A stretch of 64,000 nucleotides of DNA from contig DUMA01000010.1 of assembly GCA_012840135.1 (NCBI GenBank), positions 36,770 through 100,769 on the forward strand, in the 5' to 3' direction. Below, piece after piece: positions 49,565 through 55,432 of the stretch. The first letter of the stretch is position 1; each line of letters begins with the position of its first letter. The position numbers were made by a program, and so were the translations under genes. The notes beneath the pieces are model-generated. The model saw only the letters and a program-made list of their open reading frames with translations, had not been told where the DNA came from and searched no databases. Source of the stretch: Thermoanaerobacterales bacterium. Lineage in GTDB: Bacteria > Bacillota > Thermosediminibacteria > Thermosediminibacterales > Tepidanaerobacteraceae.

Positions 49565-50599
49565 TTAATAAAATTTTTGCGCATATGGTCTTATAGGGCC
49601 AGCCGTATGTTGTGGTAAAGGCATATTTATAAGCTTTGGATTAATTGATAGAAAAGGCATTTTTATATATTCTTTTACATAATTAACTTGTTGCATAATT
49701 AATTTATTTGACGAAGATCCGAACTGAACTAATTCTTTATTTAAACTGTTATCATGCTTTAAATTTTCTACTAACCTTCTTATATAAGATTCTTTTGTTT
49801 TTTCATTAAAAAATAAATATTTATATGAATTTAAATAGAATAGTTTATTTAATTCATCAACATAAGTACCCCTTGATAATACAATCTTATTTTCATCAAT
49901 AACTTTCGATTGGTACATAATATCATCAAATATATATATACAATGCTTTGGTGAAATAGGGAAAAAAATTTGTATCCCCATATTCCCCAATCCGTATCCA
50001 TTAAACTTATAATTTCTTTTTACATACATGTAATTATATCTAACTATTGGACGATCGGAAGTAATAAAATACCTATCATTATCAATAATTAAAATAACAG
50101 TTTTTAAGTCAAGAAGAATTGGGTATAACTCTACTGCTGCTTTCATTGAATATAAATTAGGGACATCATAAGTGACTTGTAAATTATCAATGGCTTCATC
50201 AGGAACGTCTAATCTTCCATGTTCTTTATACATTTTTGCAGATACTCTCATTAATTCAGTAATTAGTTTTTCGTTGGTATCAGCTTGTTTCTGTACTCTA
50301 GCTTCTGATAATAAAATAAATAGCATAAGTAAATTATATTCTTCGCTATAAAGTTTTGGCAAAGTTATTGATTGAATAATACTTCTTATTAAACTGGACG
50401 CATGAGTTTCTATTATCATTAGCATGTCTTCGATTTCTTTATTTTTCCCGTATAAATAATCTTTACATGCCTGCTTTTTAATTGAAGCCTGTTTGATAAA
50501 TTTTGAATTACTATTAATGAACATTCCAATACTTTTTTTATTCTCTGAAAAGTTTTTCAATAGAAACTGTGGAACATAGTGATGACTTTTTTTCTCCAT
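49565..50599 (-). CDS. DUF4238-like protein
   Basis: MEKKSHHYVPQFLLKNFSENKKSIGMF...YFITSDRPIVRYN. RBS GGAGGGTCTTAATG places the start at 50599 rather than 50785. Confidence 0.75.
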   Translation of the reverse strand: MEKKSHHYVPQFLLKNFSENKKSIGMFINSNSKFIKQASIKKQACKDYLYGKNKEIEDMLMIIETHASSLIRSIIQSITLPKLYSEEYNLLMLFILLSEARVQKQADTNEKLITELMRVSAKMYKEHGRLDVPDEAIDNLQVTYDVPNLYSMKAAVELYPILLDLKTVILIIDNDRYFITSDRPIVRYNYMYVKRNYKFNGYGLGNMGIQIFFPISPKHCIYIFDDIMYQSKVIDENKIVLSRGTYVDELNKLFYLNSYKYLFFNEKTKESYIRRLVENLKHDNSLNKELVQFGSSSNKLIMQQVNYVKEYIKMPFLSINPKLINMPLPQHTAGPIRPYAQKFY

Positions 50600-50785
50600 T
50601 AAGACCCTCCATAAATAAATAAACTGTAGAGTTAAAGGTATAGTTATTTCAGTATTAAGCATTCCAAACCCTGGCCCCCAAAACGGCGGCAATTTAGTTT
50701 TTGATACTAATGAAACGGGATTATCAGAACAAATAAACCCACCATATCTATTATCGGCGAATTTTTGATAATTATAAAATCTCAT
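50600..50785 (-). pseudogene. Remnant of a second DUF4238-like C-terminal region, in frame with the gene above
   Basis: FICSDNPVSLVSKTKLPPFWGPGFGMLNTEITIPLTLQF parallels FITSDRPIVRYNYMYVKRNYKFNGYGLGNMGIQIFFPISPKHC of the downstream gene. Confidence 0.5.
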
Positions 50786-51461
50786 GTAATCTTAGATAAA
50801 TATTACCGGTTTGTGCAGCATGTCTTCTTTTTCTTAATAATAGTTGAATTAAATCTATACGTGCTTCCAAAACAGCCATTAAATCACTGCCATCCATCAA
50901 AATCATCAATCTTCTTCCAGTAGAATGTGCTTTAACAGCATCCTCAGAAAAACCATTTACTGCTAAGAATAAACCAAGTGTATTATCAAGTTTCCTCGAT
51001 AATTTTCCGCTAAATGCATCTAATTCTTGTATTCCAACTAATTCTTTTTGCCATTTTCCTTCAAATAAATAATCAGTGTTCTCAAAAGTAAATGCGCCAT
51101 CAATTTGCTCGCCTTGAATTTTAAATGATGCCTTAGGGTCAAGATCAAATAAAACAAACAATTCCTTCATAATCTTTTCTAGTTGATACCCTCTAGCCCG
51201 TAAATCATCTGAACTGATTAATCCATAAAAAACTTTGTTCAATTCCTCCAATTTGTCCGATACACCCTTATTTTTCATCCTCATTTCAAAGGCAACTTGT
51301 CGCCTTGCTTCAATTTCTTTTTGTTCCTGAACAATATCATCATGAATTTTATATAACTTTGAAAGCGCCAATACTGATTCTTTGGCTTTTCTTGCTTTTT
51401 CTTTACCATCATCAAGTCTCTCTAGATGCGGATAGTCAGTAATTTTTGTTACTTCAGACAT
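50772..51461 (-). CDS. PD-(D/E)XK nuclease-like (restriction endonuclease-like) protein
   Basis: RGYQLEKIMKELFVLFDLDPKASFKIQGEQIDGAFTFENTDYLFEGKWQ (D...ExK pattern). Likely ATG start MSEVTK at 51461 rather than GTG at 51491. Confidence 0.65.
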   Translation of the reverse strand: MSEVTKITDYPHLERLDDGKEKARKAKESVLALSKLYKIHDDIVQEQKEIEARRQVAFEMRMKNKGVSDKLEELNKVFYGLISSDDLRARGYQLEKIMKELFVLFDLDPKASFKIQGEQIDGAFTFENTDYLFEGKWQKELVGIQELDAFSGKLSRKLDNTLGLFLAVNGFSEDAVKAHSTGRRLMILMDGSDLMAVLEARIDLIQLLLRKRRHAAQTGNIYLRLHEIL

Positions 51462-51474
51462 TAACCTTAACAAA

Positions 51475-51819
51475 TCACCTATAAGTGTCACCCGGAGGAA
51501 TACTAATTGGTGTACCTATATTTGCTTTTATTTTTGAATCATTCAAATCAATAACACGGATTTGCGCAAAACCCTTACCTACGTTGATAAAATATATACC
51601 AATAGGAAATCCATCTTCTTCACACAATTGAAATGCTTCTATTTTACTAATTATTAAAAAAGGGCAACTTTCCAAAATACGCATCTTTTTCTGTTCATTT
51701 ACACCTTTTGCGGCATAAATTGCCGCAATTGCTGAAGAAACTGCCGCAATTGCTGAAATAATATATGCTAATGAGTCAATATTATCAAAAAAGATGTTTC
51801 TCAATAAAATTACCCCCAT
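51475..51819 (-). CDS. Hypothetical TM-anchored protein, possibly C-terminally truncated
   Basis: N-terminal TM DSLAYIISAIAAVSSAIAAIYAAKGV; the ORF stops within what looks like a beta-rich domain. Confidence 0.5.
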   Translation of the reverse strand: MGVILLRNIFFDNIDSLAYIISAIAAVSSAIAAIYAAKGVNEQKKMRILESCPFLIISKIEAFQLCEEDGFPIGIYFINVGKGFAQIRVIDLNDSKIKANIGTPISIPPGDTYR

Positions 51820-52318: not shown

Positions 52319-55300
52319 TTAAGTCTTTTTCTTTTGGGTTGATATCAAATCAATGTTTCTTTGAGTTTTTATAGAAATGCCAAGTATGCTTGCTATTTTT
52401 TGCCTTTCTTTATATTCCGTTGGAAACATGTATAAATACTGTAGTACTAATCCTGTTAATAAAGATCTCGAAAATAAATTGCTTTTTAAACGTTCCAAAA
52501 GAAACTGAATATCATCAAAAGGAAATGCTTTATAATAATCTAGTTTAATAGAAATATCGATTAAGTTTATAGAGATATAATCATAGTTATTTTTGACCTC
52601 ATTAAAAATTTCATTTAATTTTTCTGTACCTAAACTGCCGCTTGTTTTTTTTATTAAAGAAAAAGCTAGCAATTCAGCCAAATGAAATATAAATCTCTTA
52701 GAAATTTCTTCGATTTTATCCTTGTCAACCAATTTATTTTTATCTATAAATTGTTTGATATCATTTAATAAGTAATCTTTATTAATTGAAATCAACTTAA
52801 AAACTGTATTTAATGTTCGTAAAGCAAGTAAATAAACCTGCTCAACAAGATGATATTTATTTTCTCCTTTTAATGAACCATAATAATTTTTTAAAATTTG
52901 ACCAACAATTTCAATTGTTTTAAAGGCAAAATTTACCTTTGCAGAATAATCTATTTCAGAATTACCCTCTGATAAATCTGATGTTGATGCTACTTCGTTT
53001 TTTTCTTTAAGTAAATCTGCTTCATCTTGTTTATGTAAAACTTTTTCTCGATTTTTTGAAACATCAATGTCATTGAGAATAATTTTAGGCAGATCGGTCA
53101 TTAAATTATTTATTTGATCTATATCATTTTCTAATTTTATTGGCTCCACTTCTTTAAAAATCGCTTGAGCGTTTTGCAGCAATGTTTGAAGAATAAAAGG
53201 ATCTTTTGAATGATGAGTTAAAAATAAAATTATATTGGCGTTTCCTTGGATATAAAGTTGTTTGCAGAGTTTAATAATTGTTTCGCGGATAGAATTATTA
53301 TTAATGTTATTAGCAAGATATTTTGCTACGAAGAAATAATAGACATATCTGTACCTAATCTTAAAAACTCCTTCATTCTCTTCTAATATAAAAGCTGCAA
53401 CTAATTTTGAAGTTATTTCTTCTAAGTTTACTGTAACTTTATATTCATTACAAAACCATGAATGAAAACTCTTAAGATTTGGTTGTGTTATTTCTTGAAT
53501 ATTCTTTTTAAACATAAAATATGCAAGCTCAGTAATATAGTTATAATATGCGTCTAACTCATCGTGAGAAAGACTTAATTTCCCAAGAGCTTGTATAATT
53601 AAATATGAATAGTAGTGGCCGTATGTACTTTCCTTTAAATCATGAGGATTGCCAATCTCTATTGTCTGTAAAATAGTTAAAAGAAAAAAAGGATAAGAAG
53701 GAACAAAATTATTGCCAATAATTGCATCTATTATTCGCTTAGAAGAATCATGAGTTCTTAATAATTCCTTTTCATTTATATATTTCTCACGACCTATCAA
53801 ATGCCACTTTTGAATAAGCCTACTCCGAACAAGATGCCCAAATTCTCTTATTTTGTATTGTTTGAAGTTGTCATATATTGAAGAATTTGTAGAATCATAT
53901 TGAACTATTTCTTCAATCTGTAGCAAATCATTGCCAGTAATGAATATATTAGGGTATTTCGATGTCAAGTTTTTTACAAAATTAATTTTATATTCAGGCC
54001 TAAGTTTACTAAAATGAAGGTCATCTATTATTATTAACTTTTTATTGTTAGAAAATTGGTTAAAATGTTCTAAGGCATCTTCTGAATATTGTTCACAAAA
54101 GGCTTTATTTATTTGTTTAAAAATTTTTGTATAATCATCTGATCTTACATCATCACCTTTTAAATATACTGGAATATAGCCATTCTTTAAATAATGTTTA
54201 AAAATATACTTGCATATAGTCGTTTTACCCGATTTATCTTCACCTATAAGGAGAATTTTATTTTCTGTCTCATTAATATCGAAAAGTATCTCTGAACTAA
54301 TTACTTTATCCAATTTCGATTTTTCATCATTTTTTTCTATTTTTAAATCTGTCAAGTCAGGATATACAAATATATCATCAAGAACAACTTTTTCTTTAAA
54401 TGGATGAGAAAAAGACGCTTCAGTATCATCTAGCCAAATGTTAAAATTCGAGTTAATTTGAAAAATATTTTTGGATAAGCTTTTATATCTTTTATAAGAG
54501 ATCCAGTCCGAAGAACGATTTGAACAAGAGTAAATTTCACCATTCCAAAGATAAGTTTCAACTTTATGGATTTTGTTTTCAAGGTCAATTAATAAAATAT
54601 TAAAACCACTATTACTAGGATCTTCGTTATCCTGTAAAACTGCTCCCTCAATATATTCTGTATAATTTCCTTCAAAATCATCAAGCCGGCTTTTTTTAGA
54701 AACATGTTCATGACCGGTTATTACTATGTCTGAAGTCTGTTCAATATGTGATTTGAAATCACGCTGGTTATGGTACTGTTGCCAACAAAATGGATGGTGG
54801 AAAAGACTAATAGTCAAATCTGCTTTACTTTTAAATAATTCCTTAGAATAATATGTATGCGGAAAAAATAATAAGCCTGGCTCTTCATTTAGTTTTGATA
54901 ACCAAGAAGTGTTATAAGCATAAAATATAACATTATAATTTCCATTAACAAATTCTATTATATTCAATAAATTATCTTTAAATATTTCCTGTCCATTATG
55001 TGGGTATACTCTCTGCAATTCCCGCCATTCTTTTTGTACTTCGCAACATTGCTCAATAATTGATTCGTCAATTGCTTTTACACCATTCTTTAAAACAGAA
55101 TCAATTATTGCTTCTCTAATTTTTGATGTCTTAATATCATGATCACAATCATGATTTCCGGGAACCATTAGTATATTAAATGATTTACCGCAATATTTTT
55201 TTATTTCCTCTATTATTTTATCTATAAAACTCATGGCTTGTAAATATTCAGATTGTTTTCCCGAAAATGCAATATCTCCTGTTATAACTAAAAATAATTG

Positions 55301-55432
55301 ATCATATTCTAAACAATAATTTTGAATAGCTTCTATAAGCCGATCACTTTTATTAAAAAAATGATTTTGCCTTTCCATTTCTTTAAGATGAATATCACTT
55401 AAATGAATAATTAGTAACTTAATATTGATCAC
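52319..55432 (-). CDS. Calcineurin-like metallophosphoesterase fused to P-loop (STAND/NACHT-like) NTPase
   Basis: N-term HLSDIHLKE...VITGDIAFSG...VPGNHDCDH...FHHPF...TGHEHVS metallophosphoesterase motifs; then Walker A GEDKSGKTT and Walker B LIIIDDLHF; long helical C-terminus. Confidence 0.8.
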   Translation of the reverse strand: MINIKLLIIHLSDIHLKEMERQNHFFNKSDRLIEAIQNYCLEYDQLFLVITGDIAFSGKQSEYLQAMSFIDKIIEEIKKYCGKSFNILMVPGNHDCDHDIKTSKIREAIIDSVLKNGVKAIDESIIEQCCEVQKEWRELQRVYPHNGQEIFKDNLLNIIEFVNGNYNVIFYAYNTSWLSKLNEEPGLLFFPHTYYSKELFKSKADLTISLFHHPFCWQQYHNQRDFKSHIEQTSDIVITGHEHVSKKSRLDDFEGNYTEYIEGAVLQDNEDPSNSGFNILLIDLENKIHKVETYLWNGEIYSCSNRSSDWISYKRYKSLSKNIFQINSNFNIWLDDTEASFSHPFKEKVVLDDIFVYPDLTDLKIEKNDEKSKLDKVISSEILFDINETENKILLIGEDKSGKTTICKYIFKHYLKNGYIPVYLKGDDVRSDDYTKIFKQINKAFCEQYSEDALEHFNQFSNNKKLIIIDDLHFSKLRPEYKINFVKNLTSKYPNIFITGNDLLQIEEIVQYDSTNSSIYDNFKQYKIREFGHLVRSRLIQKWHLIGREKYINEKELLRTHDSSKRIIDAIIGNNFVPSYPFFLLTILQTIEIGNPHDLKESTYGHYYSYLIIQALGKLSLSHDELDAYYNYITELAYFMFKKNIQEITQPNLKSFHSWFCNEYKVTVNLEEITSKLVAAFILEENEGVFKIRYRYVYYFFVAKYLANNINNNSIRETIIKLCKQLYIQGNANIILFLTHHSKDPFILQTLLQNAQAIFKEVEPIKLENDIDQINNLMTDLPKIILNDIDVSKNREKVLHKQDEADLLKEKNEVASTSDLSEGNSEIDYSAKVNFAFKTIEIVGQILKNYYGSLKGENKYHLVEQVYLLALRTLNTVFKLISINKDYLLNDIKQFIDKNKLVDKDKIEEISKRFIFHLAELLAFSLIKKTSGSLGTEKLNEIFNEVKNNYDYISINLIDISIKLDYYKAFPFDDIQFLLERLKSNLFSRSLLTGLVLQYLYMFPTEYKERQKIASILGISIKTQRNIDLISTQKKKT

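What the first reader, a model, noticed from the sequence alone, without database searches (positions are those of the whole stretch)
52319..55432. Metallophosphoesterase-STAND NTPase: candidate antiphage/abortive infection protein
Seen in sequence: 1037 aa with N-terminal calcineurin-like motifs (SDIH, GDIAFSG, GNHDCDH, FHHPF, GHEH), a central P-loop (GEDKSGKTT) with LIIIDDLHF, and a long helical C-terminus. It is in an AT-rich accessory block beside a PD-(D/E)XK-like nuclease and a conjugative module. Established knowledge: STAND NTPases with N-terminal effectors (Avs-type and relatives) are phage sensors. Inference: a STAND whose effector is a phosphoesterase, possibly acting on nucleotides or nucleic acid.
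Basis: partly seen in the sequence, partly recalled or inferred. Interest (0 to 1): 0.72.

Follow-up and report, generated by a model that had tools for sequence, protein, structure and literature searches.

The report
DS-8 anti-phage protein (phosphoesterase-NACHT)

Summary
The 1037-aa ORF (52319-55432) carries every calcineurin-type phosphoesterase motif, a Walker A/B STAND/NACHT NTPase and a helical C-terminus. It is a full-length member of NCBIfam NF053861 "DS8_antiphage" (1115.7 bits, curated cut-off 790). DS-8 was published in 2026 (DefensePredictor) as a one-protein E. coli defence system; mutating the phosphoesterase or the NACHT ATPase abolishes protection. My additions: the phosphoesterase residues are invariant in 16 sequences across many phyla. 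An alignment-based AlphaFold model (pLDDT 84.6) matches NLR NACHT modules and phosphodiesterases (GpdQ, Rv0805, SMPDL3B). Residues ~346-1020 recur with a TIR effector on Vibrio, Streptococcus and Lactococcus plasmids, which argues that the phosphoesterase is the swappable effector. The gene is absent from 40 sampled related genomes and sits in 26-31% GC cargo next to a conjugation module, as expected of a horizontally acquired defence gene. The C-terminus is no recognisable repeat array and diverges no faster than the rest. Trigger and substrate remain unknown. New member of a known kind.

The parts
52319..55432 (-). DS-8 family anti-phage protein: metallophosphoesterase, NACHT/STAND NTPase, helical C-terminus, 1037 aa; likely start ATT at 55423 rather than GTG at 55432
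   Evidence: ORF; NF053861.1 1115.7 bits vs cut-off 790; PADLOC PDC-S60 E=7.5e-157; Shine-Dalgarno pairing
54533..55420 (-). metallophosphoesterase effector domain (residues ~5-300; D13, H15, D53, N93, H94, H212, H241, H243)
   Evidence: Pfam Metallophos 8-244; all these residues invariant in 16 sequences; model and matches to GpdQ, Rv0805, PAP, SMPDL3B
53798..54277 (-). NACHT/STAND P-loop NTPase (residues ~386-545; Walker A 397-405, Walker B 466-471)
   Evidence: AAA_22 389-475; matches to NOD2, NLRC4, NLRP3; conserved in A4
53273..53797 (-). helical/winged-helix part of the switch (residues ~546-720), nSTAND_NTPase4 at 647-702
   Evidence: Pfam PF24406 E=1.4e-13; model
52382..53272 (-). C-terminal helical region (residues ~721-1017) with a low-confidence acidic stretch ~812-828; probable sensor or regulatory part
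   Evidence: model; shared with TIR-type proteins; conserved to about the same degree as the other domains

Best explanation
This is a single-gene anti-phage defence protein of the DS-8 family, carried as cargo beside a conjugation module. Proposed working: the resting protein is an autoinhibited NACHT/STAND switch; a phage-derived cue perceived by its helical C-terminal half causes nucleotide exchange and oligomerisation; the clustered N-terminal dinuclear-metal phosphoesterases then hydrolyse a phosphodiester substrate, most likely a nucleotide or cyclic nucleotide, which stops phage replication with or without the host cell. Shown: domain content and intact catalytic residues (here), and that defence by the E. 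coli family member needs both activities (published). Inferred: the trigger, oligomerisation, the substrate, and whether the cell dies.
For: NF053861.1 DS8_antiphage 1115.7 bits vs cut-off 790, residues 10-1019 on model 1-994; PADLOC PDC-S60 E=7.5e-157. DS-8 protects E. coli from phage, and phosphoesterase or NACHT mutations abolish it (PMC13092281). Twenty-two columns are invariant in 16 sequences, among them D13, H15, D53, N93, H94, H212, H241, H243, G402, T404 and D470. AlphaFold with 16 sequences: pLDDT 84.6, pTM 0.67; Foldseek to NOD2 3.7e-8, NLRC4/NAIP 7.5e-8, GpdQ 5e-7, PAP 7e-7, SMPDL3B 1e-6, Rv0805 2e-6. The same STAND plus C-terminus carries a TIR domain in plasmid proteins (BLASTP 3e-79, 26% over 688 columns; ThsB1 TIR match), one clade placed among phosphoesterase versions. 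Absent from 40 sampled related genomes and 25 class-mates; AT-rich cargo by a conjugation module. Relatives lie by Hhe-like/PDC-S37, Type I methyltransferase, PDC-S02, Eco57I R-M and a Pycsar effector.
Against: No activity was tested in this host. The substrate and trigger of the published member are unknown. The C-terminus has no recognisable repeats. Two sister relatives (L042, L044) have lost the Walker A lysine, so ATP handling may differ within the family. The defence neighbours of relatives were not compared with a background rate.
Confidence: 0.88

Rival explanations
1. The phosphoesterase acts on nucleic acid (an Mre11/SbcD-like nuclease) rather than on nucleotides, so the activated protein degrades phage or host DNA or RNA.
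For: Mre11 chains are among the fold matches (between ranks 32 and 41, E 4e-6 to 3e-5); SbcD model TIGR00619 E=0.013.
Against: Matches to GpdQ, PAP and Rv0805 are better, with higher target-normalised TM-scores (0.48-0.61 vs 0.30-0.38; SMPDL3B 0.41-0.43); in the PDB profile search the top phosphoesterase match is GpdQ, E=1.6e-5. TIR as the alternative effector on the same scaffold favours nucleotide chemistry (inference).
Confidence: 0.25
2. The phosphoesterase destroys a defence second messenger, so the protein regulates a CBASS/Pycsar-type pathway rather than being the killer.
For: Homology to SMPDL3A, which cleaves cGAMP, is noted in PMC13092281; one relative (L032) lies near a Pycsar effector gene.
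Against: DS-8 is described as a single-protein system that protects E. coli; no cyclase domain was found in the scanned neighbours of the window gene (49.5-57.6 kb); no partner gene of the window recurs beside relatives.
Confidence: 0.1
3. It guards the conjugative element against competing plasmids or elements, with phage defence secondary.
For: Position beside the conjugation module; several relatives are plasmid-borne.
Against: The published family member stops phage; many relatives lie on long, presumably chromosomal contigs.
Confidence: 0.1

Closest known systems
DS-8 (DefensePredictor system 8; NCBIfam NF053861.1 DS8_antiphage; PADLOC candidate PDC-S60)
   Same: Single protein; N-terminal metallophosphoesterase, central NACHT/STAND NTPase; full-length match over the curated cut-off; all catalytic residues kept
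   Different: Other host; lies in AT-rich cargo beside a conjugation module; the E. coli sequence itself could not be retrieved for direct comparison
TIR-STAND proteins of Vibrio, Streptococcus and Lactococcus plasmids (loci L034-L036)
   Same: Same junction, NTPase, switch and C-terminal helical region (residues ~346-1020; 26% identity to the Vibrio one)
   Different: N-terminal TIR domain instead of the phosphoesterase; below the DS-8 equivalog cut-off (558.7 of 790 bits, Vibrio protein)
Avs/AVAST STAND defence proteins (Avs4)
   Same: STAND switch with N-terminal effector; Avs4 is a weak fold match (8dgf, E=8.5e-5)
   Different: Avs effectors are nucleases or other enzymes, with long TPR-like sensors (own knowledge); here the C-terminus is short and without a recognised repeat
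DS-9A (NF053862 DS9_1_antiphage)
   Same: Related phosphoesterase domain (E=2.2e-11 over residues 7-108)
   Different: Two-gene system with a HAD phosphatase and no NACHT domain described; far below its cut-off (43 of 420 bits)
Bacterial STAND proteins with 'calcineurin' effectors predicted by Kaur et al. 2021 (PMC8195603)
   Same: Predicted modular swap of calcineurin, TIR and other effectors on STAND NTPases
   Different: Those carry FGS or TRADD-N modules, not looked for in detail here

Membership tests
DS-8 (NF053861 DS8_antiphage) | Full-length match above the curated equivalog cut-off | tested here: met
   1115.7 bits vs 790; protein 10-1019, model 1-994
DS-8 (NF053861 DS8_antiphage) | Intact dinuclear-metal phosphoesterase residues | tested here: met
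   D13, H15, D53, N93, H94, H212, H241, H243 present and invariant in 16 sequences
DS-8 (NF053861 DS8_antiphage) | NACHT/STAND NTPase with Walker A and B | tested here: met
   GEDKSGKT 397-404, IDD 469-471; fold matches NOD2/NLRC4/NLRP3
DS-8 (NF053861 DS8_antiphage) | Single-gene system | tested here: met
   No neighbour of the window gene recurs beside 15 relatives (all-against-all BLASTP)
DS-8 (NF053861 DS8_antiphage) | Protects against phage, needing both domains | not testable with these tools
   Shown for the E. coli member only (PMC13092281)
Avs (AVAST) STAND | STAND NTPase with N-terminal effector | tested here: met
Avs (AVAST) STAND | Match to Avs family models | tested here: not met
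   PADLOC scan gives only PDC-S60 and a weak mad8 match
Avs (AVAST) STAND | Long C-terminal repeat sensor | tested here: not met
   ~300-residue helical region, no repeat family in Pfam
DS-9A | Match over curated cut-off | tested here: not met
   43.3 vs 420 bits

The most novel reading that the evidence does not exclude
The DS-8/PDC-S60 scaffold (junction, STAND switch, helical C-terminus) is one sensor chassis on which phosphoesterase, TIR and probably nuclease effectors are exchanged, so that the same phage cue drives different nucleotide-depleting or signalling chemistries; the phosphoesterase may destroy a nucleotide in a way equivalent to TIR NAD+ depletion.
Probability: 0.5. Interest if true: 0.5.

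Novelty: new member of a known kind. Interest (0 to 1): 0.32.

Why it matters
It places an experimentally validated but mechanistically open defence family in another lineage beside a conjugation module. The phosphoesterase/TIR exchange on one scaffold gives a handle on the open question of trigger and substrate: proteins with the same sensor part but a TIR effector of predictable chemistry can be used to find the trigger first.

Tried and rejected
A protein-only scan of genome contigs found nothing; the two-sequence alignment query then found 68 loci. The phage collection had no match, and viral contigs gave only short phosphoesterase-domain matches (residues 8-97), so a phage-borne origin is not supported. 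A single-sequence AlphaFold model was useless (pLDDT 36) and not used. Promoter and terminator scans are at the shuffled level. No direct repeats marking element ends were recognised. A cyanovirin match to residues 241-305 (E=0.015) and the RecA-concatemer matches are judged chance or multiplicity effects. The weak mad8 match is only the P-loop.

Full report
Observation. The reported frame is real. It lies on the minus strand, 52319-55432; the plus strand there is full of stops. Pfam finds Metallophos (8-244, E=3e-11), AAA_22 (389-475) and nSTAND_NTPase4 (647-702, E=1.4e-13). GC falls to 26-31% across ~49-56 kb, against 50-53% in the conjugation genes to the right and mostly 36-47% to the left. 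The conjugation genes are confirmed as TraG/VirB4-like ATPase, TrbL and coupling protein. The neighbouring 239-aa 'nuclease' has only an E=0.0025 match to a type IV restriction model, so that part stays tentative.

Start codon. The GTG at 55432 lies within the strongest Shine-Dalgarno pairing (GGGGUGAUC, -16.2 kcal/mol), and the initiator Met of nearly all relatives aligns with Ile4. Translation therefore probably starts at the ATT at 55423. This is an inference.

Identity. The protein matches NCBIfam NF053861.1 'DS8_antiphage' over its full length with 1115.7 bits against a curated cut-off of 790, and PADLOC candidate PDC-S60 with E=7.5e-157. Relatives from Bacteroidota, Chloroflexota, Pseudomonadota and a Paenisporosarcina plasmid score 995-1203 bits on the same model; a more distant relative, L054, scores 374 and is below the cut-off. 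DS-8 was described in DefensePredictor (Science 2026, PMC13092281): a one-protein system with metallophosphatase and NACHT domains that protects E. coli from phage; mutating either of two phosphatase residues or a NACHT ATPase residue abolishes defence, and the substrate is unknown. Effector use of calcineurin-type phosphoesterases on STAND proteins had been predicted earlier (PMC8195603; related conflict systems in PMC7159879).

Conservation. In an alignment of 16 proteins, from Bacteroidota to a Thorarchaeota bin, 22 columns are invariant. Among them are eight phosphoesterase active-site residues (D13, H15, D53, N93, H94, H212, H241, H243) and the Walker positions G402, T404 and D470. The Walker A lysine is replaced by alanine in two sister sequences, L042 and L044. 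The C-terminal helical region is about as conserved as the other domains (27% mean pairwise identity versus 27-31%), which argues against a fast-evolving recognition array and for a conserved trigger. That last step is inference.

Structure. AlphaFold2 with the 16-sequence alignment gave pLDDT 84.6 and pTM 0.67. Foldseek against the PDB returned NLR-type NACHT proteins (NOD2, NLRC4/NAIP, NLRP3, NLRP9) and phosphoesterases (GpdQ, purple acid phosphatase, SMPDL3B, Rv0805, Mre11), with Avs4 weakly. Query-normalised TM-scores are low (at most 0.28), as expected when a match covers one domain of a multidomain model. The top match, a model of the YydD-YydB complex, was not followed up.

Effector exchange. 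In plasmids of Vibrio, Streptococcus and Lactococcus, the region equivalent to residues ~346-1020 is joined to an N-terminal TIR domain. In a tree of that region the three TIR proteins form one group (96/95) lying among phosphoesterase versions, with phosphoesterase-bearing rows also on the deepest branches; the exact position of the TIR group is unresolved. A looser relative, L010, has the NTPase behind an N-terminus whose sequence (GLDIAY...VQLKVG) resembles a PD-(D/E)XK nuclease by eye; Pfam does not confirm this. The simplest reading is that the phosphoesterase is the effector and the shared part the sensor and switch.

Context and spread. No match occurs in 40 sampled related genomes or 25 class-mates, and only the window's own genome of 399 in the phylum sample passes the cut-off. 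Relatives are scattered over many phyla. Several sit by recognised defence genes: Hhe-like/PDC-S37 with TnsB/TniQ-like genes on the other side (L039), Type I methyltransferase and a PDC-S02-related gene (L046), PDC-S02 (L044), Eco57I R-M and a Pycsar effector (L032). Several other tested neighbours had no such match, and no background rate was measured. No neighbour of the window gene recurs beside its relatives.

Mechanism. Best account: an autoinhibited NACHT switch is triggered by a phage cue, oligomerises and activates the clustered phosphoesterases against a nucleotide or cyclic-nucleotide substrate. The need for both activities is published for the E. coli member; the trigger, oligomerisation, substrate and cell fate are inferred.

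Verdict. This is a new member of a known kind; the modest extra value is the exchange of effectors on one scaffold.

Noticed in passing
L042:7989-11054 and L044:8004-11078: Two sister DS-8 relatives (100/100 support) have alanine in place of the Walker A lysine (ADESSGAT, GEEKVGAT) with all phosphoesterase residues intact; ATP binding may have changed or been lost in this branch.
   Followed up: partly
window 49565-50785 (minus strand): DUF4238 protein whose first ~60 residues (ICSDNPVSLV...GFGMLNTEITIPL) look like the C-terminal piece of another DUF4238 protein placed in frame ahead of a complete one; possibly a recombination scar.
   Followed up: no
L010:838-3243 (minus strand): 802-aa STAND protein related to the DS-8 switch (PDC-S60 E=2.5e-19, NACHT, nSTAND_NTPase4) with a PD-(D/E)XK-looking N-terminus instead of the phosphoesterase.
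   Followed up: partly
L039:11722-17700: 1993-aa Hhe-like protein (PDC-S37 1340 bits) 0.6 kb from a DS-8 relative, with TnsB/TniQ-like genes on the other side: possibly a transposon-associated defence cluster.
   Followed up: partly
L048, L049 and L033: DS-8 relatives whose reading frame is interrupted (Flavihumibacter, Chitinophaga and a Jeotgalibaca plasmid), suggesting decay or sequencing errors.
   Followed up: no
window 55423: Probable rare ATT start codon, with a Shine-Dalgarno sequence that overlaps the apparent GTG start.
   Followed up: yes
window 50772-51491 (minus strand): 239-aa protein with a possible D-x(n)-ExK motif (IDGAFTFENTDYLFEGKWQKE), no Pfam match, weak type IV restriction similarity.
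   Followed up: partly
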